Below are positions 3,008 through 64,000 of a stretch of DNA of 64,000 nt, one piece after another. Location of the stretch: contig JAFCMP010000078.1 in the NCBI GenBank assembly GCA_017506865.1, positions 124,001 to 188,000 of the forward strand, written 5' to 3'. The stretch's first letter is position 1. Each line of letters begins with the position of its first letter. The DNA comes from Tribonema minus. Its lineage: Eukaryota; Sar; Xanthophyceae; Tribonematales; Tribonemataceae. Position numbers and translations under genes: made by a program. Below the pieces are notes generated by a model. The model saw only the letters and a program-made list of their open reading frames with translations, was not told the origin of the DNA and did no database searches.

Positions 3008-6000
3008 ATGCTGCCTGCTGTGCGCCGTATCATCACCGTCAATCGCAGAACGCTTCTGCCGATCGCACCACAACTCGGGCATTTACAAAGTGCACAGTGT
3101 CAACATCCCCATCACAAGCAAATCAGGCAACTGTGGTGGCGACGCAGCAGCAATGTCGCGCAGGCGAGCGAGGAGCAGCAACCACAGGTACCGCTGGCTT
3201 TGCCAAGCATGCATGTTTGTCTACTGCTCTTTTCATTTATTGCAAGTCACTGTGACAAATCAGGACATATCATAGTTAGATCAAATTGGTGCCGATATTT
3301 AACTGACACCAAAACCTGTCATGGTCCAGCAAGTTCCTTGTCAGCCAATGACTCACTGTGCTGTGCTCATCAAACACACCAGGTCAGGCTCAGGCTTGTC
3401 CAATTAAGTAAGCTTCACTTGGATGGCGATGTATGTGTGAACATCCTGCGAAAAGGGTGTATGCTCAAACCGCATGCATGTTCTCGTGATTGCAGCTTGA
3501 CCCTAAAATTCCGCCATCAGCAACGGCCTTCCGGAGGGAGCCAACCTATCAACCAGTGGATTTTGATGTTCAGGGTGAGTTTCGGTGACACACACCGCTC
3601 TTAATGAACTGTTGAAGTATGCCTATGTGACTTGCTTGCTTCCATATACTCAGTATTGAAGGCATGGGCGAGTTTCATAAATTTCACTGCCCTCACAAAG
3701 TGAAGCGCCACCCTTTTCTGTGCATCGCAATACTGTTGCGCCCGAAGATTTGAAGCGACATGTCAAAACCTGCAAGTCAGTCACGAAAACTTTCATGTCA
3801 CGTACACTTACACAATCAGCTGCTGCTTGCTGATGCTGCTCAACTGGCTTTATGATGCAGAAAGTATATAGCATGCAACGCCAAGCAGCTCACGCGACCT
3901 GTTGTGGTGCCATGGCCTAACCTGAGCGCTATCGCTGGCGTAATTGCTGCTGCCACCATGTGAACAACACGAAAACAATCTACTCCTCACTCAACACCCT
4001 TTGCCTGCATGATGGTTTTGTATGCGGCCAAATTGAGGGTAGCCTTATTGCATGTGCCGACTGTCCAGCTGCCATACAGGGAGTCGCTACAACTATATTC
4101 ATATATTCAGGCAGCATGCCTGTATGAACACTTTGCACCACACAGTTGTGCGCGTTCTTCTTCATCATGTTTGGCTCTGCTGTATGCCTCAAAACTTTTT
4201 GCGTTGGCGGGGTACCCACGCACCTGACAATCCAAACCTCACCGAAAAATTTCAGTGTACCACTTCCACGCTCCCCTGCGCAGCCAAGATCGAGGGCAAC
4301 GAGACACAGGTGCTGACGGTGGAGCTGCAACGCGGTCAGAGGCTGCGCGCAGAGGCGGGGAACCTCATATACATGACGGAGGGCGTGGTGATGGACACCA
4401 GCACTGGGGGCGGGGTGGGCAAGGCGCTGTCAAGAGTCATCACTGGCCAGAGCGTCATGTAGGTCGTCTATCATACAATCCATGTTCTGGTGTGGCATGT
4501 CATTGCGATTGGTTATGAGAGCGTGGTGAGGGTTAGGGTTAGGGTGGGGTAAGACCAGGGTCATGGACCTGGACACCAGCACGGGGGGCGGGGTGGGCAA
4601 GGCGCTGTCAAGAGTAATCACTGGCCAGAGTGTCATGTATGTTTTCTGACCAATGATAGGTGCTCCAGTAGACAATGTGATTGGAGATGAGGCTAGGGTT
4701 GGGAGTAGGATTGGGATTGTGATGGACACCAGCACGGGGGGCGGGGCGGGCAGGGCGCTGTCCAGAGTCATCACTGGCCAGAGCGTCATATGAGATTCAA
4801 ATGACCGATGCTCTGTGGTATGTCAATGCGAGTGGGCATACGAGTGTGGTCAATTTAGGGTTCGGGGTGGGGTAAAGCTGGTGCTATGATGGACCTGGAC
4901 ATCAGCTCGGGGGGCGGGGGGGGCAAGGCGCTGTCAATAGTCATCACTGGCCAGAGAGTCATGTAGGTTTCCTAGTACACGATTTATGCTTTGGTATGAT
5001 TTATGTAATTGGATATGAGGGCTAGGATTTAGGTTGTGATTCTCAAGGTGATGGACATCAGCACGGGCGGCGGGGTGGGCAAGACGCTGTCAAGAGTCAT
5101 CACCGGCCAGAGTGTCATGTAGGTTTTATAACAGTTAAAAAAAGAGAGAAAAAAATCTTCTGTTTTGTAGAATTTTGCCTCCGGTATGATGATGTAATTG
5201 GACATGAGGGGCTAGGGTTTAGGGTTGTGGTGGGCATAGCGGGTGGACAAGGCACCGTCAAAAGTTGTCACTGGCCAGAACGTCATGTGATATTCAATTA
5301 CCACCGCTCTCGTATGATGGTGCAATTGAGATTGAGCGTGCTCAGCGTCAGGGCTGGGGTAGGGTTAGCGTTATTTATGATGGACTCATGTGGGGCTCTG
5401 GTATGATTATGCGTTTGGGTACGCGGCATGCACGGGGTCAGGGCTGGGACAGGGTTATAATGAACACCAGCAGGGAGCAGAGGTGGGGAGGCATTGTCAG
5501 GCCCTATGCCACCTACCCTGTGCGCCATGCGCACCCATGCACCGGCTACCTACTCTATGCACCCTGCGCTCAACACCTATCTGATGCATCCTAGCCACTG
5601 GTGTATCCTAGCCACCTACATACTCAGTTCATGTGCCGGCTACATACCCTATGCGCTGCAGTGGCTACGTACCCTCATGCGCCGCGTGCTCGCTACCTAC
5701 CTGCCCTACGCACCCCCCATGCACTGGCTACCTACCCTATGCGCCGCAGTGGCTACCTACCTACCCTCATGCGCCGCTATGTACCTACCTACCCTACGCG
5801 CACCCCCCTCCCTCAGGGTCACAGACTTCTTCCTGGAGCCGACATCGCGCCGCACGTCATCGGGTCACGACTCGCGTGTCGGTCAAGTGTGCCTCGGCAC
5901 AAGCATGCCCGCTAAGATCCTGAGGCTGCCGCTGGCGGACTTCGGGGGGTCGGTCGTCTGCCAGCGCGGCGCGTTTCTGGCTGGCTCAGACACCATCGAT

Positions 6001-8956
6001 ATCAGTACGGAGGTAACGCGGCCGATGGCGGGGCTTTTTGGGGGCGAAGGCTTTGTGCTGCAGGTGAGCGCGGTGTTCATCCGTGAGTGCGCGCGAAAGC
6101 AGCGTTGGTGATGCCTGTGTTGTAGCGTTGCTGCGGAATTGGCTGGCGTGTCGACTCTGATAGTGTGGACATGAGCTTGCGGCGGGCCCGTAAGCAACTG
6201 CTGCGGTGACGCTCCGCTTGCCGTGTAGGTAGGTAGGTATGAGGCCAGCACTCACACAATGATGGTGCCATTGCACTGCTGGAATACATGCAACATCAGT
6301 GCTGCTGCGCACCGCTTGGCGCAGAGGGCGGCATCTTCGACAACGCGTGCGGCCCACATCAGTAGGCTCATGTGAACCTCACAGTTTTGCAACTTCAAGT
6401 ATCCACTGAGCGGGAGGGTGGCACATCTACAATTGTTCATGGTGCTGGCATTGATGCGTGCATTCCCATACCCAATACATACCCTGGCACCGCGCAGCGG
6501 CTCAGCGGCGAGGGCGACGCGTTTGTGAGCGCGTGCGGCCACATCATCTAGGAGCCCATACATACATTCGCGTGCAGGATACATACCCTGGCACCGCGCA
6601 ACGGCTCACCAGCGGCGATGCGGTTGTGAGCACGTGCGGCCACGTCATCGAAGAGCCCAGATGTACATGCATACCTACATACATGCATACTTCAAACATA
6701 CATACATACTTTTAAAACTACATACACACACATATACGATACATACCCTGGCGCTGCGCAGCGGCTCAGCGGCGAGGGCGACGCCTTTGTGAGCGCGTGC
6801 GGCCACGTCATGCGGCGCGACCTCAAGAGTGGCGAAGTGCTGCGCGTAACGGCCGGATCGCTGGTGTGCTTCTCTTCAACTGTCGACTATGGGGTCACAA
6901 CGGCTGGCGGCTTGAAGAACATCGTGTTCGGCACGGACGGAGTTTTCTTGGCCACACTTACGGGCCCGGGGACGGTGTACCTTCAGGTATGTAGGTATTA
7001 AATACTGCGACTTTCGCGCAAGCCTACCCTTGCCACTAGAGACCGCCGCTAACGGGCCCGGCACGGTGTATGTATATTATGTGCATCTGCAGGTTTGTTG
7101 GTTTTTGACTCTGTTCTCCCGCGCAAGCCTGAACTCAATCCTAGCAACAGCCGATGGCAGCGAGGGAAAGCGTGCTTTGAGGGACGCGGAACCTTCATGC
7201 TCTGGCAAAAATCTGCTGGCTAGGATTAGCCTGTAAGGCTAGCGCCACTTGCCGCAGCAAGCAGTCCCGCTGTGTAGGGGCTCTGGGGGCTAGCCATGTC
7301 CATGCAGTGGTAGGGTACCGGAGGCGACTGCGTGGATCACTGGAGTGCATGTTTTGTACTCCTGTAAGAAGACGCCTCCCAGATTTTATTTGGCTGCATC
7401 GTGAATGTGTATACTGTCACGTACCTCACAAAACCTCAGCGGCGCAGTGGTCACAGTGGTTAACCACCATGTCCATGTGCTCGGCCTGCACGACCGTTGT
7501 CAATGCTATGATACCATGTTGCTCGGCAGAATAGTGAACAAAATCACTACTCCCTTTCAAGACAAAGCTTCACCCAGTGCTCAGCAGCTAACCATTGCTG
7601 CACTCTTTTGTTGATGGATCACAGGGCATGCCCTTTGACAGGCTGGTTCGAGCGATAGGCAAGGCGCTGCCGCAGAACGCTAGTGGCATGCCTGTGCCTC
7701 CCATCATAATACCAGGCATGGGCGGAGGGGACAGCGGGAATGCGCCACCGGGTACGTAGGTTATCAGCTGATGTTGAAATTATGTCAGCGCCAGCGATAC
7801 TGCAAGGTGCAAATGGTACCTCCGAGTGTTGCTCATAACTCAAGCAAATTTTATCACGCAGCACTGCAAGTGAGAAGGGGAGGCTTCACTGGGACTGAGG
7901 TGTACGATCTGTTTACCCGCGTGCGGTAGGTATAGGGGCATTGTGCTAGAGGCACGATGCGACGTGAGCACATGAATGCGCCATCAGGTGATTTGTAGTC
8001 ACGGCAAGGTTGAGAGGTGCACAGCCAGTAATGACGCGTGCTCGTATGATATCCATTATTTCAGTGCGCATGCCGCCAGCCACACAGCGCATTGCGTACA
8101 GTATTTGTTATCCCTGTCAATGGGTGCACGCGGACACAGACGGAGACCCTACCATGGGGTATGTATGCATTGTAAGGTTCAGTGAACTCAGTTTCACTGA
8201 ATTCAGGTTTGATGAGTTCACTGAACTCTGTTCAGATCATGGTTCAAAGGCGCCACAACCATGATGCCCCGGAGTCACACTTGACTGAGAAGACAGTGCT
8301 GCATAATTGCAAGCAGCGTGCCCTTCGTTCTGCCCGCCAGGCAAGAGCAGAGGCGACTGCGAGACCATGACACGGGCTGTAAGATGCTCGTCGAAATAGG
8401 TGTGTGGTGGCGTCAATGTGTTGCCTAGGGTCAAGATAGGGTTGACAAATTTCGTCACTTAGCCTTAGTCACTACCGATGCAATTTGCGGTGAGGTGAGC
8501 GGGTTCAGGGAAAAGACTGCTGGGAACGTGCAACAACGGTCATGCCTGGCAGCAGCACGCGTGAGGTTCTGTCACTGGTGCCACATGATTGCGAGTGGCA
8601 GTTCCCGTGTGCCGACAGTCTCTGCATGGGCAGAGGCGACAATGAGACCATGCTACTCTTTGTGTCCTGAACTAACCTAAATAACATCACAGTATATAAA
8701 CCTGAACTAGCCAAGTTAAACTATGCTCAGAAGCTCGTGTACTGAAATGAGGTGTGCACATGTGACTCTCCATTCCGTTGCAGGAGAGGCGAAGCCGGTT
8801 GGGGGAGCCGCGCCGCTGCCGCCGGTCGACCACAGCGGCGCGTCGCAGTCTACGACAGACCTATATGGCGATGTCGCCCCGGGGCAGGATGAGATCATCC
8901 AGGGGCACGAGGAGTTCGACTTTGACACGGATGAATTCGACGACGACTACGACTGA
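3008..8956 (+). CDS. AIM24: AIM24-family protein, probably mitochondrial
   Basis: Seven exons: 3008-3187, 3496-3574, 4284-4458, 5817-6063, 6762-6986, 7625-7751, 8784-8956, giving 401 aa with all phases matching. Residues 1-60 look like a mitochondrial presequence (MLPAVRRIITVNRR, Arg-rich, no acids early). The AIM24/TIGR00266 double beta-sandwich follows: QVLTVELQRGQRLRAEAGN in exon 3, VCQRGAFLAG in exon 4, and SGEGDAFV, LKNIVFG and GTVYLQ in exon 5, all hallmarks of the family. The C-terminus is a glycine/proline linker and a very acidic tail (DFDTDEFDDDYD). In yeast Aim24 supports inner-membrane organisation; bacterial homologues are of unknown function. The family assignment is strong; mitochondrial location rests on the presequence. 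Introns 3, 4 and 5 are filled with tandem copies of the flanking exon edges, described separately. Exon 1 is the least certain. Confidence 0.88.
4384..5505 (+). repeat. Tandem array of the AIM24 exon 3 donor edge
   Basis: The last ~75 bases of exon 3 plus the start of intron 3 recur downstream at about 4560-4645, 4716-4798, 4888-4970, 5038-5122, 5228-5290 and, badly decayed, 5459-5505. The core of each is a G-rich stretch (gcacggggggcggggtggg) followed by catcactggccagag and gtcatgta. Spacing is roughly 155-180 bp. Most copies keep the atgtaggt or atgtatgt donor. The intronic part of each unit includes a telomere-like ctagggttaggg stretch. Only the first copy is in the gene model. Confidence 0.9.
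5500..5812 (+). repeat. Degenerate ~30-bp tandem repeat before AIM24 exon 4
   Basis: A run of variants of the words ctacctaccctatgcgccg and cagtggctacctac fills the last 300 bases of intron 3, ending in the pyrimidine tract cacccccctccctcag that serves as the acceptor of exon 4. The repeat is C-rich on this strand and may have been recruited as an extended polypyrimidine tract. Confidence 0.75.
6480..7100 (+). repeat. Copies of AIM24 exon 5 edges in both flanking introns
   Basis: The acceptor and first ~55 bases of exon 5 (ggctcagcggcgagggcg and gtgagcgcgtgcggccac) occur three times: at about 6484-6545, 6588-6655 and the used copy from 6745. Downstream, the exon end acgggcccggggacggtgta reappears as cgggcccggcacggtgta near 7054-7071. 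So one exon has had its 5' edge copied upstream and its 3' edge copied downstream. Confidence 0.85.
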
Positions 8957-10596: not shown

Positions 10597-13500
10597 ATGA
10601 GGCCCAACGATCGTGAGTGGAGCTGCGATGTGTGCAGTGCGAGGCTGGACCTGCTGTGCCCTGACTGCTTTCAGCTGCACGTGTCACGTGCCAGGGCGCA
10701 GCTGGAGGCGCTGTCCCAAGCTCGAGGTGCGTGCAGCTCTACCTGGTCTAATCACTAGCACCGTCATCTAGCCGCGGCTTCTCGCCTCGGACCATTTCCA
10801 GGCTCGCGGAGCTCCTGTCGCAAAGCTGCATCTGATTGTAGCTGCTGCGAAAGGGGTGCGTTTTTCCCTGATTTCAGCTGCTGCAAAAACATATCCTTGT
10901 GAGCCTGGCTCACACAAAACCAGAGCGGCCTCATGGGAGGCTGCAGCCTCCTGGTGCACATCACCCTGTCGAGTGGCTGGTACTTGCCACTTTGTATCCA
11001 ATGTCATCTTGACCTTTTGTTGATTTCATTTGTGAACAACGATTGTCGAAAGCATGCTGTTCGGAAGGATGATGTGAAACCACAGTACTGATCTGATGGG
11101 TTACGCGCAAACTGCAGCGGACGTGAAGCAGGAAACGGCGAAGCTGCTGGCGGCCAATGAGGAACCGCTCGGCAGCCTGCTGCATGGAGACGAGCTGAGG
11201 GTGGAGGCAGATCACTTGCGAGAGGAGCTGCTCAAGCTGTCACAGCAGGTCGCAACCGGTGAGCACTGCTGCAACGGACGCCACTGCTCTCTGTAATGTG
11301 TGGATTCAGTCAATAACATGCAGCTCTTCCAGCAGAGGAGGGCAAAGCGGCGCACCAGCGGCACACACATAGTTCCCCAAGCACTGCCTCAGTCACCAAG
11401 CAAAATGGCCCCGCGCTGGTGTCGCCGATAGGGCTTTATGAGTCTGCAAGTCTGCTGTGAAGCCTTTGTCATCACAACGGCGCACGTTCACGTCATTTCA
11501 CATGACTCACAAGCCTGACTAACCCTCCACCAATTGCTCCTGCTCTCCTGCGCCTGTGATGCGCAGAGAGGGTGCAGCTAGCAGCGCGCGCGTTCGCTGC
11601 CGTAGACGCTGAGGCGGCGCTGGTAGCGGCACACGCGGCCTTCGCCGCCTCGACCCGCAGGCAGGAGGCGGAGCAGCAGGCGGTGGATGGCGGGCTCGCG
11701 TGGTACGCCAGCCTGCGCGAGGCAGTGCTCAGGCAGCGGCGGTTACAAAGGGTGAGTCATTGCACTCCCCATGAGAAGTGACTTGTTGGTAGCTGATTTT
11801 TAGGGGGTTCCAAGGGGCGGCATGTGTGCGCGCGCTTGCACGGGGCGTGGTGACTGGCAGGGTATGTAGGCATGCCTGTACGATACATGGTCGTGTGCGT
11901 GTGAGCCGCGGTGCCCTGGACACTCAGTGAGAGATTCCAAAGTAAGCTTATAGTGTGGTAGCACGAGCTATGATATCAGTGCCCACGAATCATTCATGAC
12001 CACGGGCATGTGCTACATGCATGCAGTATCGGACATTGCCTGTCCATGATGGTCACATTGTGCGTTTGGTCAGGTGGAAACTGCGCTTAGGCGCTGCCCG
12101 TTGCAACGCCTGCGGCAGTGTCCTCTTCAGAAACAAACGCATGTGAAGGCGCAAATGGCAGATGTTGCCACACAAGTGCGCTGTGACATTTGATGTGAGG
12201 GCGGCAGTGCTCAGTCAGTGGCGGCGACACAGCGCTACCGTAGCCATCAAATCTGTAGAACACACCATGTTTCTCCCAACATGCCTCCGAAGGCATCTAC
12301 AGGACGCATTCGTAATTTCAACATCTGCCCAGCCGCTGACATCACCAATCATCTCTGGGGATGTTTCACGGCATATGCTCTAGTGCCATTGGGTTCAGTT
12401 GATTACAGGCTGCGCATTACACGTGCTCCTTCACACATTCAGTCTGGCCACAACACTGGGGGCAAGAACGCGAAGGCGTATCATTGCACACTCGACTATT
12501 GCCAGTTGGCATGAACGCCAATTCAACACTGAGTACACATCACTTTTTATCCCGCTTGAGTCCAGGTTCTCCAGCTATACATACTCCTGCCCCTGGAGGT
12601 GTCAATCGACAGCGGAGCGGAGCCGCAGGGCCTCAACAACGGAAATCTTCAAGTTGAAGTTATCAGGCGCGGTCCTGTGGGGGGTGTGGGCGCCATAGCA
12701 GGCCTGCCGTTGCCGCACAACGGCGCGTATGCGGCCGTGCCGGATGACGTCCTGGTGTCCGGTACGCAACGTGCTATTGATCTATTAGTATGTTCTACAC
12801 TGCTCAGAAAGACGCTCGGTGTGAACATGGGCGTGTTAATGGTTCTGACACCTCGCACGTTGGCCGGCAGATGCAAAAGCCATACATAGCGTAATTTGAG
12901 GCATGCCTGTGCATGCAACTACGGCACGTGCTAAACTGCTGATGCGGCGGTGACGCCATTATCTATGCCGCGGTTCATGCTGAGCTTATGCTGCAACGGT
13001 CACATCGTCATCAGCAGGGTGCACGTTTGTCAAATGTACTGATGATATAATACCTAGAAGCAGAAGATCTATGCAAGAGGTCTCGTTGCCCTGCCACTGT
13101 CGCGCGATGCCGGTCTCACATTCACTTTCAGTCCGGATCCTTGCGCAACATGTGTGAAGTCAGCTTCGTGCAGCAAATGCGGAGAACTAATTGGATGTAT
13201 TGCGTGTACTCGCCCGGGATATTGCCTGTTGTCCCCCTTGCTGCATGTTGCAGATCCACTGACCTATGTATGACAGGAGTGCCATGACATGTATGTACGT
13301 ATACATGCAAGTTGCGGACCTCAATCAGTGACCTGCATGCATACACGGCCACACTTGTGCCCTCTGAAGTATATGCCTGCTGTGACCTCTTGCAGACATT
13401 TGACACCACTGACAAGATAATGCGATGCTTGCTGCGCGTTGCCACGTTGCGTCCTTGTCTCGCTGGAGACAGCTCTGTTCTTGATTGCAAGGCTCGTGGA

Positions 13501-30474: not shown

Positions 30475-31961
30475 CTATCTGAGCGCTGCTGGCATCAGGG
30501 CGCGTACCAATGTGGCCATGTCGATGGGCTTGGCCAGGAAATAATCCGCGCCGCTCTCGTAGACCTGCGTCACCACGGACTCGGCGCAGTTGGCGGAGGT
30601 GACGCACACGTACTGCGCTGAGCGCTGCTGCTGCTGCTGCTGCTGCTCGCGCTCCCACTCCCGCAGTGCCGCCAGAACCTCGAGGCCGCCCATGCGCGGC
30701 ATGTTGAGATCGAGAAGCACCTGGAGGCACAAGGGGGATGAGGGAGCCAGCGCCGCGTTGTTGAAGCACACCATGCAGCACGGCAGACTTGCGGTGTCCA
30801 GAATGCCTCTTCAGTTTGGCAACTGCTGCTGCTGCTGCACTGGCTGAGCTGTGCCATCGCGTCAGTAGGTCTCATTCTCAGAATGCCTGCCTCGAAGCGC
30901 TGCTGCCGCTGCTGCCGCCTGCCCTGGCTGAGCTGTGCCATTGCCTCACTGCGTGCATTTTTCGTACACTACCTCGTACTGTGCTATGTATGTATGCATG
31001 TGCTTGTACAAGATGACCATCATATGTGCGCACCGCGTGGAACGCGCACGTGTCAAGCCCCTCCACGCCACGGCCGCGCACGCCCAAAGAAGTGCAGGTA
31101 TGCAGGTATACACGCATGTACACAAGATGACAAGTGCATACATACATACATACCGCGTGGAACTTGCACGTCTTCATGGCACCGAGCCCCTCCACGCCGT
31201 CGCACGCCACCGTAATTGCAGGTACGCGTATAAGGTAGCTACGTATGTATGCATCGTATGCATTTACACAATGTGACCAGTACATACGTACCGCGTGAAA
31301 GGCGCACGTCTTCATGGCACCGAGCCCCTCCACGCCGTCGCACGCCACCACCACGCGGTACCCGCGCTGCTCCAGCATCCGGTCCAGGAACTTGCGAATT
31401 GACCCCTCGTCGTCCACCACCAGCACCAAAGGCCGCCTGCTGCCAGAGCTAGACAGCGATGCACTAGGCGAGGCCCGAGCGCCCGCCAACGACGGCTGGA
31501 CGTACCGCCTGCCGCTGCTGCTGCTGGCGCTGGCGGCGGGGTCGAGACCTAACGACGCAGTGCTGCCGGCGCTCTCGAGCCTGAGCGATGACATGGCCGA
31601 TGGGAGCGTCACAATTGCGTCAGCGCGCGGCTGCGCGGGCTGTGGCTCTGGTGAGGATGCGCGCTGCTGCTGCAATTCGGGCGGTGGCGCTACTGAGAGC
31701 TGCTGCGTGAGGAGCGGTTGCGAGCGCTGCTGCAGCAGGGGGGCGGGGAAGCGCGGCCGCGGGGGGGCGGTCACGGGCAGCGGGCGCGGCAGTGAAGCAC
31801 TCGCATCCGCGTCGTCTGCTGAGGTCGGCCTGAATGTGGTCACGGCATCCGCGATGGTGTCTGATGCACACGACTGCTGCTGCAGCTGCTGCTGCCCCTG
31901 GTGCTGCTCGTGGTGCTGGTGCCACTCCTGCTGCTGAGTTTCGCGCTGCGAGTGCTGACGG

Positions 31962-31997
<36 letters not shown>

Positions 31998-32105
31998 GGA
32001 GTTTTCTGCAGTTGCCCGTCGCAGCCACATTCGCTGTCCTCCTCGTCCAACCCCTGTTGCTGCAACTGCTGTTGCTGTTCAAGTTGATGCTGCTGCTGGT
32101 GCTGG

Positions 32106-32193
<88 letters not shown>

Positions 32194-48359: not shown

Positions 48360-48486
48360 CACGCTCCACTAGTGAAAACGAGCTCAACCTCTCCCCCTTT
48401 CCTCGCCACGATGTGAACAAACTTCAACAACCGTTTTCCGTTACCCACGTCGTGAAAAAGCACGCTAGGTACTTTTGGCCAACAAC
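48360..48486. promoter_or_regulatory. Bidirectional promoter shared by DPCD and DNAI3
   Basis: Start codons of two flagellar genes lie 127 bp apart on opposite strands, so one compact region must carry both 5' leaders and promoter elements. It contains a CT-rich stretch (aacctctcccc) and an aacttcaacaacc word. I found no clear TATA box and no good RFX-type X-box. Shared regulation is inferred from position and common function. Confidence 0.65.
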
Positions 48487-51400
48487 ATGGCCGAGGATCT
48501 CAGCAGCAAGACCGCAAAGCAGGCGCCTCCAGATGGCGTGAAACCGATATGGATACAGGCCAAGAATTACGCCACCTATGGATTAGGCAGTTTGGAGACG
48601 GGGTATCCTAGCCACGTGCTGCTGAAGAGAGCTGACCTATTGACTGACATAGACAAGTATGGGTTCATGAACGACTTCAACGATTACAAGGTTGACCTCA
48701 AGAAGTACAAGGGTGAGGTGAGACTATGATTTGGCACGTGCCTGTGCGATCAGTTGTTCGATTCAGGAAGCCTTAGTATCTTCAACATGACTATGTTTGA
48801 GCCATATTCTGCCGCATCAAGCGTGTGTATCTTCTGCAGTTGAATCTGCTCATTGAGTGTATGCACTTGGTGTGTGGCCGATCTTAGCTCATTTGAAGTA
48901 AAGTGCCAGTTTAAGCCTCAATTTTGAATACTTGCCTTGCTGAACTCTGACGTCCTTCTCCACCTGCTGCTGCTTCTGAGCATGTGCTGACAGGATGTGC
49001 TGCTGGTGCATGATGAGAAACGCACATATGGCGAGGACTGGTATTTCTGCTTCACACAGGTCAGTTTGTGGCTGGTACAAAAAAAAAAAGGTTCGCAAGT
49101 ACACAACTTGCACACATCATACCACGTCTTGTTGCATGCATGCCGCTTGTTGTGTCGTAGACACCTTCTGTTGGGTAGATCTTGTGCAAGTTCAAGTGGC
49201 TTTAAGCTGCCAGATCCCTGTGCGTTTCATGACTGGTGTTGTGACCACGACTGTAAAGGGGCTGGCTTCGATGATGGTACTTGAAGTATCGCGTATGTGT
49301 ATTGTAGACTTTACGGGAGGCTGACAATTCATTGAAGGCCGACCAATGATTCACCTGACAGCTTTACTTTGAATAAATGCTTCAAGCACGATGAGCTTTC
49401 TCATGCGAGCATGTTGAAGTGCATTCAGCGACTAGCAGGAGCCAGTGCTTCGCAAAAATTGCAACATAATGGCTTGTACATTACCGCCGGGAACACAAAT
49501 TGTTCCTGCGTTTTGAAGTCTTCGCAGGGAAGGTGTTGATCAAAAGCAACGACGGCCAGAGCTGTCGCTATTGCTTCGATGCACACAGCGTTCGGCATGC
49601 AGTGTTGGCAGCCAATGGTGACGGCACATGTAGCTGATGCGGCAGCAGCAACAGCTTCACGCAGCGCAATCAGTGTAACCGATGCGGCAATTCTTCCATT
49701 ACGTGATTGCGCTGCGATAAAGAGTGCGCACACACATCTTTCTCGCATTGCTGCTGCTTGTCGGCTCAACAGGGGCATTGTGCCGTTACACCCTGTTACA
49801 CTAGTGTTTTTGTGCATATGCAAGTGAGCATCAAGCGCACATGCATTCTCTACGCTCTGCTGCTGCTTGCAGGAAGCATACGATGCGCAGTGGCAGCAGC
49901 TCACTGCTGCGGCGGCGGCGGCTGGCGTGGCGGCGGAGGCAGCGGCGGCAGCGGAGGCAGACGCAAAGCTGAAAGCGGAGGAGGAGGCCAGGCCTGTATA
50001 TGTGGACAAGCCAATACTGCCGCGCCCTTGGGCCTCCACAACAAGTGAGTGAGATTTAACTCATACTTCAAGTATGAAGTAATGTTATGTATGAAGTGAG
50101 ATGTAATAGTGCCCCGCCCTTGGGCCTCCATGACAGGTGAGTGAGAGCTAACTAATACCTTAAGTATGCAGTACTGATAGTCAAAGCGGAGGAGGAAGCG
50201 TGGCAGCAGCCTTGCAGAGCGCAGGTTCGCCTGTCGACTCGAGCTGCCCGTGCCAATGAAGTCTGATTGATTGCCACAAGGGTGTTCGAACACGTGGCAC
50301 TTGACACGTGGCACACGCTTCCTCTCTCTCTGTGTGCCTTTGGCTGGTTCCTGGTTTTTGGCTCCCTTCGTGCCAAAATTGCCGAAAACTTTGAGTACAT
50401 GTGGATGAGCCAATACTGCCGCGCCCTTGGGCTTCCATGACAAGTGAGTACGATTCAACTCATGCTTCAAGTAGGAAGTACTGTTATGTATGAAGTGAGA
50501 TGTAATACTGCCCCGCCCTTGGGCCGCGAATACAAGTGAGTGAGGTTTGTCCTATACTTTAGGTATGAAGTACTTCCTCCGTCCCATAAGTATGTTGACC
50601 ATTCTATTGACAATTGTTAACATTTCAGCATCAAGAGCCGTGCAGACCGCCCCTCAATGAACATTGTTAGCCATGTCCAGGACTGCGCTCTCTCAGAACC
50701 TGAGCTCCCAACTCCTCGATTTGGCCGTGTGACGGCCAATACCGCAAGTGCAACAGAATCGTGCCTGTGCAGAGGTGCACACGACCGCATGGCAACCACG
50801 TTGCAGGCATTGTCTGCTGCCAACACTATTTTGGAACCCCATTTGCTGCAGGGTTGTTTCAGGTACATCAGGTCAAGTGACTTAGTCAGTTATTGAGTCA
50901 CAATACCATGTATAGACTGCATGGCGGTGCACAACGGTATTGTCATTTGAGGTTGGTGAAAGCACGCCATGGCCTTCTGAAGGACCATGTGGCTACCTGA
51001 TGGTGCAGACGCCCGTGCAGCACACTAACTGGTAGACCCAAAGCTATAGCAATGTTTGAGCTTTCCAACAAATGCTGGTGACTGAATGCATCAGCAAGCC
51101 ACTATAGCACCTGCCGGTTGCAGGGCATAGTGACAGGTCATCCGATGCTAGGTACGACTGGCAAGAAGCCTTGAAGGCTGCTGTGAGTACACCGGCCTAT
51201 GCCAGTGCCTGAAATCATGCAATAATAGCATGATCTCGAACCCAAGCACTCCACAGCATCATTGAAGCAGTCTAGCCCACAATGTGGCCGACCGGTTTTC
51301 ACGCTGTCGCGTTAGCAGCAACACCAGGGACCTGCTGTGCAGCATGTGTACAGCGCACCTACCGGCGATACGGCTTCGCTGCACGATGTGTGCTGCACAA

Positions 51401-54400: not shown

Positions 54401-57400
54401 GGCCCTAGAGGGTCCCCTTGCTGGCACCCTAGGTGGGAGCAGATAATGCGAGCTTCACCGTTCACCTCCACCCGCATCTCTGGGGCAGTGTCACCACAGT
54501 ATACGGACTCAAAGTGCGGGAGCAGCTCCGGACAGAAGAGCATAAGCCCCCGCACAATGGCGGCGCGATCCACACTGTTAAATGCGTTCTCACAGTCCAG
54601 TTGGATAGTGGTGCCATACAGCTCGTGCCACACGCGCGCGCGCGCTGCCACATGCTCGACGCCAGACCGGTATCCTACGCCAAACTGCGACATGGAGGCC
54701 AGCAGCCCCGATATCTTGCCCTTGACACTCCGTGCCGCTGTGGACCCGAGGAGTCTGCGCCAGACACTGGAGCAGGCGATCGGACGCCGCTTCTGTCCTA
54801 TGCCTGAGAGGGCCGCGGCGCGGAGAAGCCGTTGCGATTGCTCCGGCAGCAGTTCGGGCTCAACAAGCAGCGTCGTGAACACCTTGGCCAGGTGATGGGC
54901 GAATGCCGGTTCCATCACATCTGATTCTGAATCACCAGCTAGTCCTGGCGAGGCACTGCTCACGGGGCGGGTGGCTGCTTTCACTGGTGCACCAGGCCCA
55001 GCGGCCATCAAGAGGTGTTCATAGCGTAGGCCGTCCAGCCCTCCTGCCTTCCCCGCCCCTGCTGCGGATAAGGTCGACAGTATGTCTGCCGCCTCCACCT
55101 CGAGGCGCCGTCCGGCAGAGGAAGTACTTGTTTTGTATGAAGTGGGATTTAACATATACTTCATGTATGCAGCAATGTGGTGCGTCACTTGCAGTTGAAG
55201 CTTGTGCTGTGCGTAGGTGAGCTATGCGGGCACTGGTGTGGACATAAACAGCGTGTCGGCGCTTGATGCACTTGTTTGAAGTGAGACTTGCAGACGACAT
55301 TTGCTGATAACGCCAATATCTTAGTTCCACATAAGCCCTGAATGCGCATCCACCGCATTGCGCGCCCTGAGGCCAGCTGAGTGGCGCATGCATGTGCGCA
55401 GTGGGCATGCATGCCTCTAGTAATACCTTAAGCTTGGCAGTCACAGGATAGTGTTTACATCACACACAAATTGTGTGACAATGTCTACATCACTTGACGT
55501 GCAATCATGGCGAAATGTTTGTGTGTTGTGTCGCTGTGGTATTCAGTGGAGGACACATGTGCGGAGGTGGAGTCTCTCACGGTAGCGCTGGAGAGGCCCC
55601 TGCTGAGAATCGCAGTCACGCGGCCCAGGTGAGCGCTGACGCGAATGCAACACTTGAAGTAAGTACATGTTGAAGTTGCAGCCGCTTGATGTTGGCACTT
55701 GAAGGAAGACCGCCGCGTGATATCGGTGCAATGTGGCCAACATTAAATAGTGTAAAACCAAGCTAGGTGCGAGGCTAGCCGCTGTTGTCATGATGCATGA
55801 TGCTTGAAGTAAGCACTCACTAAATTGGTAGTAGCCGCAGTTGCTGCCTCCGCCGCGCAGGGGAACGACCTGGCATTGGGCGCTGATGAAGACTAGAGGT
55901 AGACCACACGGAGGGCGTTTAGTGTCCCGCGCAGTCATATGAAAATTCTGTTGCTTGGATTTGCTGACGTTGTGTTTGGTGATGCAACACAGTAAACGCT
56001 GTAGTCTGCGGTCGTAAGGGGGGCGTAAGCTAGAGTACAGCTTGAAGGCCAGTGCTCCGTTTGCGCGTGCTGCATTTAGAACCTGAACCTGAGACCGCAT
56101 TGCTCGATCCCTAGCCCTAAGCCGTAGCGAGCCTGAATACAATATATGTGGCTAAATCCATGAAGCATGCAACGACAGCGACCGAAAATATCTGTTGCTG
56201 TTTGGAGCTGTCGATGGGCAGGCAGCAAGCACGAGCTGAGCAATGGGGCACGTCCGCATTTGTCTCAAATTGAAATAAATAACGAGAACGAGTATACGAG
56301 GCGGGGCTGCAGCTTCAACTTCCACTTCAACTGATTGCAGCACTCTTGGCGGCGCATGCATTCTGGCGACTGCAGGCGAACATTTGGACTGCCGCTCAAG
56401 CTGGGGGACCGCGATGCCATGGAGTGGATGACCGACGAAGGCATGTACAAGGTACATACATACCTAGAAGTGCACAGCATCCAATGTCCCCCCCAGACTG
56501 TTGCATGCAAGCCGCTGCGCATCAGATAATCAATCTCTGGGGGGGGGGGTATTTAGCCAATATACCCCCTCCCCCCCCAAGCTATTCAAGGGGGGGAGGG
56601 CTATTACGGTACTGTTGAAGTCGTAACGCCTGGATCTGGGCCGGGTGGGTGCATTACACATGCAGGCATGTACTGTACAAGGTACCAATACCCTGGAAAT
56701 GCTATCGGTGAAGGCCTGTTGCTGGCTGGCGCATACGTGCAGCAAAAATGCATGCACCTTCTTCACTGCGCCTGAGAACACACAAGTGCTTGAGAACGAG
56801 CCGCTAAGGTGGCGTCAGCAGGGCCTGCTGTCTGGGAGGGAAGCAGACCATACTCTTCAAGGGAGAATGTTTGCATCAGGCGATGCATCCCATTAGTAGA
56901 TGCTGATGACTGCCGACAGGCTGCGGTTTGTGGCAGTTACACCATGGTGACAGTTACGACAGTCACGCGAGCCTCAAATCCTGCACCCACAGTCTGCTGT
57001 CAGGTGGGAGTGAAGATATTTGGCGATGTCGTTTATAAGTGATTGTCAGTGCACATTGAGACACTTTCAAGTCTCACAAGCCACATGTAGATTCTGGTAG
57101 CAAGCCAGGCATGTTCCAGCTGGGCTTTTTCACTCCCTGAGCGATATGTGAAAAACGAAAAGTACATGGACGCGGCGTTCAACACCCAAACCCTAACCCT
57201 AACCCTACCTTCAACCCTGATCTCAACCCTCACCCGGCTGACTGTATGGTATACGTCTTGACGTCTCCCCGACCCTGCACTGCACCTGCACGTGAACTGC
57301 AGGTGGGGGTGAAGAAGTACATGGACGCAGCCTTCAACACATACGATCCGCTCAATCCAGACAGGAGGCTCATGGAGACGGCATGCCAGGCTGCGCCGTG

Positions 57401-60400
57401 CAGCGCAGCACGCGCATCGCAGACCACGTGGCACAGGTGAACAGACCTTTTGCATTGCGTCTTGCTGAATGGTGCACCTTTGTATTGTCCATTCTACTCA
57501 TATGATCATGAATTCTCAGATTTGGCAACAAGCGCAAGCTCAAACTTGCAGCACAGCACGCGCATCGCAGACCACGTGGCACTGGTAAAGAACACTTGTG
57601 ATTGCCGTTTGCTGAATGGTGCACCTATGTCATAACAGGATTATTGTCCAACCATAATCATCATTTGTTAGATTCTTCAACTATCTCAAGCTGGATGTTG
57701 CAGTACAGCGCGCGCGTCGCAGACCACGTGGCACAGGTAAACGGCACTCATGCGTAATGTTGACTTCATTATACATTCACTACCACCGTGGGAGGTACCT
57801 CATTTGATCACGGTATCAGTCAAAGGATTCGTGAACATCACAGACGCATCAACAAAATCAATGTACTTTGCAGCACGGCGCACACGTCGCTGAGTCCCGT
57901 GGCACAGGTGTGAGTCAATTGGCGCTTGGACTTGAAGTTTGCTTGGTGGTGAATCTTCGCTGCGTAGTTCTTACGGAGGGCTTCAATCAATTGATTTCAT
58001 GAACATCAACATGGCATTGCAATGACATCAAGTGTCTAAACAACGCAACGGCGGCGGCCACAGAGCACTCTAACGTATGCCTCATTCTCTTTCCACCTAG
58101 TCCTAACCCTAACCCTACTACTGTGGTCTTGCTGGTATGTATGTATATATGTACAGGCCTGTGTCAGCGTCCGTCCAGTGCGAGCCCATGCAGATGGGAG
58201 AGGCGGATGCTCAGGGACTGCTCAGGACCGGCAACGTCAGCGGCTTTCTCAGGTCAGCAGTGTTCAGCAGAGCTGCTGTCAGTGTATACTACTGTGTGCA
58301 AATGTACCCCGTGTGTGCAAATGTACTCACGACTTGTGAGCTGTACGCACCAGTCAGCGGCTCTGAGGTTGGCAGCGCTCTTCAGAGGGACCTTGCGTCC
58401 CTTGTCCATGTATGCACGTAATGCACCAGGTCAGCAGTCCTCAGCAGACCCCTGTCATGCATGCATGTATATATACATATGCGCCGCTACAGTTCACATT
58501 GCAGTGCGGCATTGTAGCTGCATTCGTATGTGGCAGCTGCTGCATGAGTGCCTGCAGTTCACAAACCACACCCACTCAGCAGGCATCTCACCGCGTCTAT
58601 GCTCTCATACCTTGTTTCAGGCGCGTGCGGCCGCTGGTGGAACAGGCGCTGCAGCAGAACGAGGCCGTCGACATATTCGGCGACCTCTTTGCGCCCGCTG
58701 CAGGCTACGATGCGGCAGCCGCAAGTGGCAAGCAGGCAAGCACGCACGCGCCGCGCAGCAGCGCTCAGCACAATATTCAAATGCCTACTGTATGTATGCT
58801 GTGTGTGTAGCGGTCAAGGGACAGTTTTGAGTTTGACAAGTGGCCTTAGGCACTAGCATGCAAACACAAGTAATGTTATAAGATTTGCGATACATGCCCG
58901 TAAATATCAGGATCGATGAGCTCTTTCAAGGCCCGGCGGCCGCCAGGCAGCAAGCACGCAAATACGAGTACCACGGTGCAGCGGCAGAGAGAGAGTTGAA
59001 GTTTGCTGTCAGCGCTAATTGCTGCAGTGCTCCGCACTACATGCAAATGCCGACTACTGTATGTGTACTTAGTGTACTCGCGTAGTGGTGATTGTGATCT
59101 GCACCCGCATAATCGACGGGGCGGCAACCGTTGCGCTGTCACACTTTGCTTAGAGGAGGTGCCGTTCTCTTGACAACAGCGCTGTTTTCAGCAGATTTTG
59201 TAGTGTGATGTTGACAATGACAGCGCTGATTGTAGCTCTTCACAACTTGAAGTGCAATTGCGCAGATGACCTCAATAATGCGGTGGTACTCTCACACAGA
59301 GGACACCTTTTCCTCATCAATTGCATGGCCTTCCTGGCGTGTATTGTCACATGTGCGCGTGCGTGTACTTGGGAGTGCTGACAAGGCTGGTCTCTTGCTA
59401 AACCTCTGCTGCAGGGTGAAGATGAGCTCAAGGAACTCAGGACTTTCACGGACCTGGTGCACTCCAAGGGAAAGTGAGGCACTAGGTTGCGGTTTACAAT
59501 AAACAGGCAGACCCTACCCCTACCCCCCACCGAAAACTAATTTGTAGCCTCACCCTGACCCTAACCTTGTTAAAGGGCCCTGAGTCACTAAGTTACAGTT
59601 TACAATCACACTTCACCCCGCCGCTGCCCTTGCCTAGCACTGCTCGTATCTAGGGTTGCCGACCAGCGTATAATGGGATTTCCTATATGGCGTATAACGT
59701 ATAATTATAACGTATATATAATCTATACTGCGTATAGCAACTTATATTAATTGGCCAAAATCTGAAGGCAACCTCCGTTTGAATTTTTTTTCTTTACGCA
59801 CAACAGTGTCAACCTTCAAGAATTTGAATTACCCGTCGTATCCTACTAGTTCAAGCATACCTGGAAATTAGCAGCATTGCCACTTGTTCAACTTTGCCGC
59901 CATACCAAACAACCAGCATGAATGTATGCACCCACGCATTCAGTGTATGCGCGTTAAGCTCCAGATTTCAACACAATGTCAGGCTTGTTCTTGTGAATAA
60001 ATAATGCACAAACAGTGGTGCTGCACATGTCATGGCATAGCAATTGCCAATGCACACGGTCAGACTCAGGTGCATCACAGCCAGTCACCAGCAGCAGTTC
60101 AAACACCAAGTATGTGTCAGTCCATGCAATGCAGTGCATGCTCAACATGCTTTGATCCATCCCAACAGTACTGGTCACCAGGCACAAAGCGCAACATCAA
60201 AAATGATCCCTGCAAATGACTGTGGTTTTAAAACTACAAACTGAACCATTTTCCAGCGAATAAACATCAAAAATGATCCCTGCAAATGACTGTGGTTTTA
60301 AAACTACAAACTGAACCATTTTCCAGCGAATAAACTGTCGGCACCATGTTCAACATCGAATGTTGAAGTTACGGGAAGTTCTGGGAAGTTCGGTTCGTCA

Positions 60401-63400: not shown

Positions 63401-64000
63401 CCCCGTTGACGAATCACAGGTGGTGCTATGGGACACCACGACAGCAATGGAGGCTCTGGACAGGAGGCGCAAGCGCCAGAACGCCACTAATAGGCGCTCC
63501 GCCTCTGACGCCACCGCCGCCGCCGCAGCGAGCACTGTTGCCAGCGGCGCGCTTGGGGAGACTGCGGCATCGGCGGAAGAGGAAGAGGGGGGGGGGGAGA
63601 AGGAGAGGAGGGGGGGGGCGCCATCGCTGACGCCGGTCGCCAGCAGCCACATCGATATGGGCCACAGGTGAACAGCAAATTGCAAGTCGCCGCCGCCGCC
63701 GCTGTCAAGGTACCACCTGGTGTCCTGAGGCCAGTACCCGTTTGCACTACGCATATTGACTAATCTCAGTTCAATTGAGTTGATGTAGAATGTCAATTAC
63801 ATTGTGTTGTCAACTCCGGCAGAGGCTGAGAGCGCAAGCGGACACAACGGCTAGGCTTAAGGTCGGAGCAAATGGTAGGGTGCGAGCGTGAACTACAGTA
63901 GTGCTTGAAGTGTGGTGAGTTTGGGGCAAAGAGTCACCGCTTGACCTTTGCAGATACTGACATAAGCAGGGGTAATGCCACAATGCAATGCACGCGTGTC
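48487..64000 (+). CDS. DNAI3: DNAI3/IC140 (WDR63) inner-arm dynein intermediate chain, 3'-partial
   Basis: Twelve exons in the window: 48487-48717, 48994-49059, 49873-50044, 55547-55628, 56376-56451, 57303-57436, 58157-58252, 58621-58735, 59415-59473, 61512-61614, 62277-62420, 63420-63667, phases all matching, about 508 aa; it continues past the right edge. N-terminal blocks match WDR63/IC140: LLTDIDKYGFMNDFNDYK, VLLVHDEKRTYGEDWYFCF, VYVDKPILPRPW, RRTFGLPLKL, ASQTTWHRPVSASVQ, ALQQNEAVDIFGD. WD repeats begin at exon 10: ALSAVEWVP, LTFDERAKLSG, FVLIWDFTD, FRFNPTMPNLVVGG, VVLWDTT. The protein is an intermediate chain of the two-headed I1/f inner dynein arm in motile flagella. Exon 3 has an Ala-rich insert and exon 12 a low-complexity loop (EEEEGGGEKERRGG). 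Intron 8 seems to use a GC donor (CAG|GCAAGC). Introns 3 and 9 host mobile elements, and several introns hold exon-edge arrays. Confidence 0.92.
50005..50550 (+). repeat. Tandem array of the DNAI3 exon 3 donor edge
   Basis: The exon end (cgcccttgggcctcca, then aacaagtgagtgag) is repeated at about 50108-50146, 50397-50447 and 50508-50546, each still with a gtgagt donor. The unit's intron part has a motif around tacttcaagtatgaagtac. The third copy starts further inside the exon (aaagcggaggaggaag near 50186). The array resumes at 55126 (gaagtacttg, tatgaagtgggatttaac), showing that the mobile DNA between is inserted inside a unit. Confidence 0.9.
50573..51886. mobile_element. Mariner/Stowaway-type DNA transposon, no intact transposase seen
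   Basis: The left end CTTCCTCCGTCCCATAAG continues as tatgttgacc; the right end is its inverted relative (ggtcaacatatttatggg, then acagaggaag), about 26 of 28 positions matching. TA lies at both outer edges (50571-50572 and 51887-51888), the target duplication of Tc1/mariner elements. The end sequence closely resembles the CTCCCTCCGTCCC termini of plant Stowaway/mariner elements. At 1.3 kb it is too short for a complete mariner plus flanks unless very compact, and its open frames (longest 186 codons, 51284-51841) have no DDE-transposase signature I can recognise. It is probably non-autonomous. It lies in intron 3 of DNAI3. Confidence 0.85.
51889..55128 (-). mobile_element. 5'-truncated LINE with reverse transcriptase and restriction-like endonuclease
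   Basis: On the minus strand the first frame (about 55125 to 52909) is a non-LTR reverse transcriptase: GKAGGLDGLRYEHL at the start, motif A QLDCENAFNSVDR, motif B GCQQGDPLGPLYF, motif C FLDDLNVL. The second frame (52921 to 51968), shifted relative to the first and overlapping its end, has a zinc knuckle CPWRC-x10-H-x3-C, GHN, and a PD-(D/E)XK-like region (PGYRADTVI, VLDTSV). Together these are the C-terminal order of early-type LINEs. The change of frame near 52915 is either a disabling shift or a translational frameshift. The N-terminal part is missing, the first conserved RT block lying almost at the 55128 edge. It sits antisense in intron 3 of DNAI3, next to the mariner-type element. Confidence 0.88.
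56530..56605. repeat. Overlapping G/C hairpins in DNAI3 intron 5
   Basis: Two adjacent inverted repeats: gggggtat paired with ataccccc around tagccaat, then ccccccccaag paired with a G run after a short spacer (ctattcaag). The plus strand alternates long G and C runs. A folded tip of a small mobile element or a simple homopolymer-rich tract are both possible. Confidence 0.6.
57000..57915 (+). repeat. Copies of both edges of DNAI3 exon 6
   Basis: Upstream, the acceptor side (aggtgggagtgaagat at 57002-57017; aaaagtacatggacgcggcg at 57158-57177) precedes the used start at 57303. Downstream, the exon end gcatcgcagaccacgtggc and acaggt recurs at about 57552-57584, 57700-57737 and 57874-57909, each with gtaaa, gtaaac or gtgtga donors, at a period of about 150-170 bp. 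Confidence 0.9.
58253..58450 (+). repeat. Short decayed copies of DNAI3 exon 7 end
   Basis: The exon 7 end gtcagcggctttctcagg and tcagcag recurs as gtcagcggctctgagg near 58353 and as aggtcagcagtcctcagcag near 58430. The copies are short and diverged but keep potential donors. Confidence 0.55.
58910..59090 (+). repeat. Decayed copy of DNAI3 exon 8 end and intron 8 start
   Basis: The stretch gatgagctctttcaaggc, then gcggccgccaggcagcaagc and acgcaaat, parallels the exon 8 end (cgacctctttgcgcccgc, gcagccgcaagtggcaagca, ggcaagcacgca), and both are followed by caaatgcc(t/g)act(a)ctgtatgt. The copy is about 220 bp downstream. Confidence 0.7.
59651..60811. mobile_element. hAT-type non-autonomous DNA transposon with 8-bp target duplication
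   Basis: The element begins TAGGGTTGCCGACC and ends GTTGGCAACCCTA, inverted repeats of the CAGGGTTGCC kind common in hAT elements. It is flanked on both sides by the identical 8-bp word CTCGTATC (59643-59650 and 60812-60819), the hAT target-duplication length. Subterminal AT-rich inverted sequences built from cgtataacgtataat lie at 59680-59730 and 60720-60795. There is no transposase frame in 1161 bp, so it must be mobilised in trans. The perfect target duplication suggests a recent insertion. It lies in DNAI3 intron 9. Confidence 0.9.
60194..60333. repeat. Perfect 70-bp tandem duplication inside the hAT-type element
   Basis: Two identical units (60194-60263 and 60264-60333) that start acatcaaaaatgatccc and end ttttccagcgaataa. 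No difference is visible between the copies, so the duplication is very recent or an assembly artefact. Confidence 0.95.

What the first reader, a model, noticed from the sequence alone, without database searches (positions are those of the whole stretch)
4284..63667. Introns grow by tandem copying of exon edges with their splice sites
In AIM24, the fructokinase, the histidine kinase and DNAI3, the end of an exon plus the donor (or the acceptor plus the start of an exon) is copied 2-7 times into the adjacent intron. At least ten separate cases are visible in 64 kb, at different stages of decay, while the genes stay in frame. Published work shows that tandem duplication of segments containing AG|GT can create spliceosomal introns; here it seems to be an ongoing process that enlarges introns and supplies decoy splice sites. 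I know of no genome described with this density.
Basis: partly seen in the sequence, partly recalled or inferred. Interest (0 to 1): 0.9.

Follow-up and report, generated by a model that had tools for sequence, protein, structure and literature searches.

The report
Exon-edge tandem copies inside introns
In a stretch of an unidentified eukaryotic genome, about one splice junction in six has pieces of its own exon edge copied head-to-tail into the neighbouring intron, most likely because ordinary small tandem duplications are hidden there by splicing and stay recognisable for a long time.

Summary
Across 72 splice junctions in seven hand-modelled genes, 12 exon edges have a copy in their own intron (score 34 or more), against 4 of 21,600 shuffles and 0 of 2,268 non-adjacent introns. 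Copies form head-to-tail units (mostly 87-185 bp), each with partial exon, splice site and intron; their exon parts differ by 4-26% from the functional edge, so an assembly error is unlikely.

The one perfect tandem duplication lies inside DNAI3 intron 9, not at a junction. Introns with copies are not significantly longer (P=0.10). The excess at junctions weakens once copies of a conserved exon are allowed twice the detection time: P 0.002-0.05, or 0.0003-0.009 with a stricter control count. There is no consistent sign of selection on the copies.

Best explanation: general short tandem duplication; events across a junction survive because the outermost splice site still defines the exon. Targeting of junctions is not excluded. 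No relative, second genome or RNA was available, so the genome-wide claim stays untested.

The parts
4387..4458 (+). AIM24 exon 1 edge (functional donor AT|GTAGGT at 4458/4459), source of the d1 array
   Evidence: Reading frame joins to 5817 and gives an AIM24 protein; SW score 120 against its own intron
4566..5285 (+). Five diverged copies of the AIM24 exon edge plus donor inside intron 1 (exon-derived parts ~4566-4636, 4719-4788, 4892-4962, 5047-5120, 5228-5285)
   Evidence: Self-BLAST and alignments
6467..6668 (+). Two copies of the AIM24 exon 3 acceptor edge inside intron 2
   Evidence: 6467-6547 is 91% identical to 6731-6811, 6559-6648 is 80% identical to 6719-6811; SW 90
6762..6811 (+). 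Functional AIM24 exon 3 acceptor edge (GCGCAG|CGGC)
   Evidence: Frame and Pfam AIM24
20615..20692 (-). ROK/fructokinase exon 3 donor edge (source of FK d3)
   Evidence: Frame, Pfam ROK; extent by BLAST
20277..20522 (-). Two copies of FK exon 3 edge plus GTACC donor in intron 3 (a further, very decayed one near 20040-20130 by eye)
   Evidence: SW 116
21023..21050 (-). Decayed copy of FK exon 3 acceptor edge (functional 20704-20730) in intron 2
   Evidence: SW 34, reached by 0 of 300 shuffles
19468..19497 (-). Decayed copy of FK exon 4 acceptor edge (functional 19320-19349) in intron 3
   Evidence: SW 35, reached by 0 of 300 shuffles
19220..19295 (-). FK exon 4 donor edge (AATAG|GTATGT)
   Evidence: Frame; extent by BLAST
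18862..19171 (-). Three copies of FK exon 4 edge in intron 4; two keep the GTATGT donor
   Evidence: SW 120
31292..31349 (-). Histidine kinase/response regulator exon 4 donor edge (CACGCG|GTACGT)
   Evidence: Frame joins the REC domain across the intron; Pfam Response_reg 8.3e-22
31034..31212 (-). Two copies of the HK exon 4 edge plus donor in intron 4; frame stays open through them
   Evidence: SW 96; 137 codons to stop
35001..35029 (-). HK acceptor edge (GCATGCAG|ATCCTC)
   Evidence: SW 48
35186..35356 (-). Upstream copy of the HK acceptor edge with its intron
   Evidence: 77% over 186 columns to 35001-35183
49996..50044 (+). DNAI3 exon 3 donor edge
   Evidence: Frame and PDB match to IC140/DNAI3
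50105..50535 (+). Three copies of DNAI3 exon 3 edge plus GTGAGT; the two-unit block 49996-50175 recurs at 50395-50574
   Evidence: 84% over 180 bp; SW 68
57157..57185 (+). Copy of the DNAI3 exon 6 acceptor-side edge (functional 57311-57340) in intron 5
   Evidence: SW 43
57399..57436 (+). DNAI3 exon 6 donor edge
   Evidence: Frame and PDB match
57547..57907 (+). Three copies of DNAI3 exon 6 edge plus GT in intron 6
   Evidence: SW 67
12203..12232 (+).
   Evidence: SW 35, reached by 0 of 300 shuffles; Pfam ATG14 3.7e-10

Best explanation
The copies are short local tandem duplications (units mostly 87-185 bp) that happened to span an exon-intron junction, followed by further duplication of one or two units and by decay. 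Shown: head-to-tail copies, each with partial exon, splice site and intron sequence; in the gene models the functional splice site is the outermost copy; exon parts differ by 4-26% from the functional edge. Inferred: they persist because splicing from the outermost site still gives the normal mRNA, whereas duplications inside exons are removed by selection. They stay recognisable because one partner is a conserved exon, so the pair drifts apart at about half the rate of two intronic copies. The genome seems to undergo such small duplications elsewhere too. The copied splice sites are passive decoys that may sometimes be mis-spliced.
For: 12 of 72 junctions against 4 of 21,600 shuffles and 0 of 2,268 non-adjacent introns. 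Head-to-tail arrays with exon and intron parts homologous. Two-unit blocks re-duplicated in DNAI3 d3 (49996-50175 and 50395-50574) and, from a shared 6-nt insertion, in AIM24 d1, as expected of unequal exchange or slippage rather than fresh copying from the exon each time. Tandem duplications also lie away from modelled junctions, including the only perfect one, 60193-60335 with 3 nt of microhomology, and 44198-44304 at 94%. BLAST-limited ratios of intron-part to exon-part divergence are near or below 2 in FK_d4 (1.0-2.5), HK_d4 (2.4, one alignment), DNAI3_d3 (1.2-2.6) and FK_d3 (0.2-0.5); twofold is expected if only the functional exon is constrained. AIM24 d1 copies look neutral for coding changes (about 8 amino-acid-changing to 4 silent, counted by eye).
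Against: AIM24 d1 has a ratio of 3.4-4.4 in its three long alignments, DNAI3_d6 3.2 in one of two and AIM24_a2 4.4 in one of three, above the neutral bound. With fuller alignments the ratios are higher still in AIM24 d1, FK_d4 and DNAI3_d6. Some junction excess remains after a twofold detection correction: 12 of 20 loci, P 0.002 to 0.05 by assumed unit length, and with the stricter control count 12 of 17, P 0.0003 to 0.009. Copies nearest the functional edge tend to be the most similar (P=0.03), though AIM24 a2 and DNAI3 d3 do not follow. FK d3 is a fairly young junction case. No RNA shows which site is used.
Confidence: 0.62

Rival explanations
1. Junction-directed duplication: something about splice junctions (transcription or R-loop linked breaks, or the GTAT/TACC microsatellites that often start at the donor) raises the local rate of tandem duplication, so exon edges seed arrays repeatedly.
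For: Junction edges are hit at 12 of 72, against 16 of 857 tests in introns without junction copies. Excess survives a twofold correction at P 0.002-0.05, or 0.0003-0.009 with the stricter control count. Nearest copies tend to be the most similar (P=0.03). Tetranucleotide runs lie at FK d3, FK d4, HK d4 and AIM24 a2 (by eye).
Against: The clearest young duplications lie off modelled junctions (60193, 44198). Rotation of junctions within genes gives only P=0.04. Two membrane-protein donors with GTATGTATG have no copies. AIM24 d1, DNAI3 d3 and DNAI3 d6 have no GTAT/TACC run at the donor. A threefold detection correction would give P 0.025-0.23 (0.004-0.06 with the stricter count).
Confidence: 0.2
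2. The copies are maintained: gene conversion from the exon, or use as alternative in-frame extensions or cryptic exons, keeps the exon-derived part similar.
For: AIM24 d1, and DNAI3_d6 in one of two alignments, have exon parts that diverge 3-4 times less than intron parts even in conservative alignments. HK d4 stays open for 137 codons past the donor, FK d3 for 90. HK periods of 138 and 120 are multiples of 3.
Against: AIM24 d1, DNAI3 d3 and DNAI3 d6 meet a stop within 0-1 codons past the donor, and long open extensions also occur at donors without copies (DNAI3 d2 74, HK d1 54). FK_d4 copy 1 has a 1-nt insertion that shifts the frame. FK_d3 shows the reverse conservation. 16 of 18 donor GTs kept is near a rough neutral estimate of 14 (worked by hand, no call).
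Confidence: 0.1
3. Whole-exon tandem duplication followed by decay of the extra exons.
For: The copies in DNAI3 d6 are preceded by AG and followed by GT.
Against: As far as the matches reach (BLAST, 70-nt edges), only about 27-78 nt of exons 117-1324 nt long are copied in 12 of 12 cases. Copies in AIM24 d1 and HK d4 have no evident acceptor (by eye).
Confidence: 0.03
4. Assembly or sequencing artefact, or chance similarity of GC-rich coding-like sequence.
For: Tandem repeats are prone to misassembly; no reads available.
Against: Exon parts of copies differ by 4-26% from the functional edge, not the identical units of an assembly error; chance excluded by shuffles and non-adjacent introns.
Confidence: 0.03
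5. Introns being created by AG|GT tandem duplication (Rogers model) or by introner insertion.
For: Several copies carry AG|GT, the substrate of that model.
Against: The copies lie inside one existing intron; exon 2 does not begin with a copy of the intron start, as the Rogers model would need (by eye). Only four dispersed direct repeat pairs (34-73 bp) link different parts of the window after filtering.
Confidence: 0.02

Closest known systems
[quoted passage not shown] part 1 of 5 of the text read)
   Same: A tandem duplication crosses an intron-exon boundary and inherits splice signals
   Different: There one duplication created a new intron; here many arrays lie inside existing introns and no new intron is evident
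[quoted passage not shown]
   Same: Head-to-tail copies that carry splice-site sequence inside genes
   Different: The source there is exonic and the result is a spliced new intron; here the unit already spans a junction and the copies appear unspliced (gene models, no RNA)
Short direct repeats near intron ends (Rogers and Bendich 2025, PMC11782384; abstract and part 1 of 2 of Results read)
   Same: Repeats near exon-intron borders
   Different: Those are 4-30 bp pairs linking the two ends of an intron, read as insertion scars; these are tandem units mostly 87-185 bp long at one end
Introners (PMC9860276; search listing and start of abstract only)
   Same: A process that changes introns on a genome scale
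   Different: Introners are dispersed copies; these copies are local and gene-specific (0 of 2,268 non-adjacent matches)

Membership tests
Local tandem duplication | Head-to-tail copies of one contiguous local segment | tested here: met
   units with exon and intron parts in order, periods 87-185 bp in the eight BLAST-visible arrays; DNAI3 d3 also has one 307-bp step between two blocks. For the four weak cases only one short match is seen
Local tandem duplication | Copies not dispersed elsewhere | tested here: met
   0 of 2,268 exon edge against non-adjacent intron comparisons reach 34; window only
Intron gain by AGGT tandem duplication | New intron bounded by the two copies of AGGT | tested here: not met
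   Modelled introns run past the arrays to a splice site outside them, as the reading frame needs
Intron gain by AGGT tandem duplication | Relatives lack the intron | not testable with these tools
   No genome held for this window; four viral-contig scans found no relative
Introner | Many similar introns in different genes | tested here: not met
   Only four dispersed direct repeat pairs after filtering; window only
Tandem exon duplication | Complete exon with acceptor and donor copied | tested here: not met
   Only exon edges copied in 12 of 12 cases, as far as matches reach
Junction-directed mutation process | Young duplications enriched at junctions | tested here: inconclusive
   Too few young events in 64 kb

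The most novel reading that the evidence does not exclude
Splice junctions are mutational hotspots in this organism: transcription or splicing promotes repeated tandem duplication at exon edges, newest next to the exon, so that introns acquire ladders of decoy splice sites, a genome-wide substrate for new alternative splice sites and, in time, new introns.
Probability: 0.17. Interest if true: 0.85.

Novelty: new variant of a known kind. Interest (0 to 1): 0.5.

Why it matters
If the density holds genome-wide, this organism shows a common but usually invisible step: small tandem duplications captured at splice junctions, each bringing ready-made splice sites into an intron. That would allow a direct measurement of how often decoy sites become used, and of whether splice junctions are mutational hotspots, both open questions for intron evolution.

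Tried and rejected
Finding more of this genome: no whole genome is held; two pieces of the reverse transcriptase frame gave no relatives in viral contigs, nor did two DNA patterns; no plasmid match for 4000-6500; no Rfam family in the window. The organism is therefore unidentified. DNAI3 matches IC140 of entry 8glv better than the 8j07 chain; I recall these as Chlamydomonas and human, and this does not place the organism.

Strong constraint on copied exon parts: first suggested (ratios up to 9, and 20-35 where the intron part could hardly be aligned), weakened by an alignment-floor control (random floor about 0.73) and by BLAST-limited counts. Kept only as an open point, mainly for AIM24 d1.

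Selection for in-frame copies: HK d4, FK d3 and FK d4 have long open extensions, but AIM24 d1, DNAI3 d3 and DNAI3 d6 stop within 0-1 codons, and some donors without copies have long ones too; not systematic.

Rotation test: 8 of 55 junctions covered; within genes 8 of 54 against mean 4.0 (P=0.04), in the window mean 2.6 (P=0.011). It did not count AIM24 d1, FK a3 and DNAI3 a5, presumably because it needs a BLAST hit reaching 12 nt on both sides of the junction and drops low-complexity hits; the ATG14-like gene was not in its model.

Locus test rests on hand-made counts: 12 junction loci against 8 intronic loci (5630, 15329, 19764, 30825, 45824, 58755, 60193, 60743) or 5 of them (30825, 45824, 58755, 60193, 60743) as a stricter count. 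45824 and 58755 lie close to donors, and 19764 may derive from the FK d3 array. Dropped: the telomere-like run 32947-32995 and the polyglutamine tract. It assumed 31.9 kb of intron; later gave 33.2 kb. The polarity test used distances copied by hand for seven arrays.

Coordinate slips: to DNAI3 exon 7 was one base short, and searches had one-base offsets in the ATG14-like and membrane genes; corrected except that two modelled introns (ATG14-like 5, membrane 2) still end one base late (CAGG); no hit lies there. Phases printed for DNAI3 d7 to d11 are wrong for that reason, so those rows are not used.

Literature searches: no listed title or abstract start describes junction-crossing arrays at this density; three of the eight returned nothing, listings were capped, and only open-licence papers are held.
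Full report
What was checked. The window is eukaryotic, with GT-AG introns: of 34 modelled introns 33 begin GT and one GC; 32 end AG, and the other two are modelled one base late. Supports: Pfam AIM24 3e-57, ROK 1.7e-38, HATPase_c 8.1e-15 and Response_reg 8.3e-22, DPCD 1.5e-52; ATG14 3.7e-10; DNAI3 matches PDB chains named IC140 (2.6e-53) and dynein axonemal intermediate chain 3 (3.1e-47). The membrane protein has no family above cut-off. Exon boundaries follow reading frame and similarity; no RNA was available.

The copies are real. With exon sequence only (up to 70 nt) against the adjacent intron, 12 of 72 junctions score 34 or more, against 4 of 21,600 dinucleotide shuffles and 0 of 2,268 comparisons with non-adjacent introns. 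Seven are donors (AIM24 d1, FK d3, FK d4, HK d4, DNAI3 d3, DNAI3 d6, ATG14-like d3) and five acceptors (AIM24 a2, FK a2, FK a3, HK a0, DNAI3 a5). The best match ends within 0-2 nt of the junction in all seven donors and in three of the five acceptors; FK a3 ends at 15 and DNAI3 a5 at 8. Sixty junctions are below the limit. Weaker candidates not counted: AIM24 d3 (29), DNAI3 d11 (31) and, by eye, DNAI3 d5 (21).

Anatomy. The eight arrays visible to BLAST are head to tail with periods of 87-185 bp, plus one 307-bp step in DNAI3 d3; each unit holds the end (or start) of an exon, the splice site and intron sequence. AIM24 d1 has five extra copies, FK d4, DNAI3 d3 and DNAI3 d6 three each, FK d3, HK d4 and AIM24 a2 two. 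In the models the functional splice site is the outermost copy, as the reading frame requires. Only parts of exons are copied, about 27-78 nt of exons 117-1324 nt long, as far as the matches reach, which argues against tandem exon duplication. Two arrays show duplication of a two-unit block: in DNAI3, 49996-50175 recurs at 50395-50574 with 84% identity; in AIM24 d1 two alternate copies share a 6-nt insertion.

Is it special to splice junctions? With the same score limit, positions inside introns without junction copies reach it in 16 of 857 tests, from a handful of loci. Unannotated sequence reaches it in 40 of 1,224 tests: 24 in an EsV-1-7 coding repeat, 8 in the HK acceptor array and 8 from three other loci. 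Exon interiors reach it in 3 of 67 tests, all in HK exon 4. Introns that carry junction copies reach it in 105 of 689. So junctions stand out. But three effects favour them (inference): duplications inside exons are purged; duplications across a junction are hidden by splicing; and a copy of a conserved exon diverges from its source at half the rate of two free copies, so it stays detectable about twice as long. A locus-level binomial test (hand-made counts, 12 junction against 8 intronic loci) gives P about 1e-5 to 7e-4 with no correction, 0.002 to 0.05 with a twofold correction and 0.025 to 0.23 with a threefold one, for units of 100-160 bp; with a stricter count of 5 intronic loci the twofold figures are 0.0003 to 0.009 and the threefold ones 0.004 to 0.06. 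Rotating junction positions within genes gives 8 of 54 against a mean of 4.0, P=0.04. I read this as a real excess whose cause is not settled.

Age and decay. The one perfect tandem duplication (60193-60335, 70-bp unit, 3 nt of microhomology, in DNAI3 intron 9) and the 94% one (44198-44304) are not at modelled junctions. Exon parts of junction copies differ from the functional edge by 4-26%. In BLAST-limited alignments with at least 12 intron columns the intron parts differ by 7-32%, except FK d3 at 2-5% (11-14%). So small tandem duplication is general here and not confined to junctions; most junction arrays are old, FK d3 less so. Copies nearest the functional edge tend to be the most similar (net 11 concordant of 22 pairs in seven arrays, P=0.03), with AIM24 a2 and DNAI3 d3 against.

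Selection on the copies? If only the functional exon is constrained, intron parts should differ about twice as much as exon parts. BLAST-limited ratios are 1.0-2.5 in FK_d4, 2.4 in HK_d4, 1.2-2.6 in DNAI3_d3, 0.7-4.4 in AIM24_a2, 0.2-0.5 in FK_d3, 1.7 and 3.2 in DNAI3_d6 and 3.4-4.4 in the three long AIM24_d1 alignments. Freer alignments gave much higher ratios in three arrays, but there the copy-to-copy intron parts are at or near the random-alignment floor. AIM24 d1 therefore remains an oddity. Its coding changes look neutral (about 8 amino-acid-changing, 4 silent, by eye). In the six donor arrays aligned, 16 of 18 copies keep GT (by eye), near a rough neutral estimate of 14 (by hand, no call). 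Reading on past the donor meets a stop within 0-1 codons in AIM24 d1, DNAI3 d3 and DNAI3 d6, but after 137 codons in HK d4, 90 in FK d3 and 39 in FK d4; donors without copies also range widely (DNAI3 d2 74, HK d1 54).

Do introns grow? Introns with copies have a median of 832 nt, the others 729 nt (10 against 24 introns, one-sided P=0.10); arrays, with hand-set bounds, make up about 3.5 of 33.2 kb. Growth is plausible for single introns (AIM24 intron 1) but not a demonstrated general effect.

Comparison with what is known. Tandem duplication across an intron-exon boundary is described for a potato RdRp gene, where it made a new intron (PMC4974935, part 1 of 5 read). Tandem duplication of AGGT segments is an accepted route of intron gain, with an in vivo demonstration cited in PMC3443670 (passages seen). 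Direct repeats near intron ends are reported by Rogers and Bendich (PMC11782384, abstract and part 1 of 2 of Results read), but they are 4-30 bp and of another arrangement. What differs here is the density, 12 of 72 junctions, and that the copies sit in existing introns without evident new introns. In eight literature searches no listed title or abstract start described this; that is weak evidence, since three returned nothing and only open-licence papers are held.

Verdict. The most likely cause is ordinary short tandem duplication filtered by splicing and selection. Junction-directed duplication stays open (about 0.17-0.2) and would be of high interest; it needs the whole genome, relatives and long-read RNA.

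Noticed in passing
1778-2848 (-): Open frame with four EsV-1-7 cysteine-rich motifs (Pfam 3.2e-48) made of 129-bp coding tandem repeats, a coding tandem duplication.
   Followed up: partly
52909-55221 (-): Reverse transcriptase open frame (RVT_1 1.4e-07), LINE-like by eye, inside DNAI3 intron 3.
   Followed up: partly
50570-51890 (+): Apparent imperfect inverted terminal sequences (TACTTCCTCCGTCCCATAAGTATGTTGACC near 50570 and a near reverse complement near 51860) suggest a mariner-like DNA transposon next to the DNAI3 d3 array; recognised by eye only.
   Followed up: no
31034-31349 (-): The histidine kinase frame stays open for 137 codons past the donor through the exon-edge copies, with periods of 138 and 120, multiples of 3.
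   Followed up: partly
58736-59414 (+): DNAI3 intron 8 appears to use a GC donor (CAG|GCAAGC), the only non-GT donor of 34 modelled introns.
   Followed up: partly
window, e.g. 4525-4545, 22570-22590, 32947-32995, 60937-60986: Telomere-like TTAGGG/CCCTAA runs scattered inside introns.
   Followed up: no
24935-25360 (-): Open frame with a sub-threshold match to anthrone oxygenase (Pfam 6.5e-05, 23.5 bits against a cut-off of 27.3).
   Followed up: no
20228-20692 (-): FK d3 intron part is better conserved between copies than the exon part (ratio 0.2-0.5), the reverse of AIM24 d1.
   Followed up: partly
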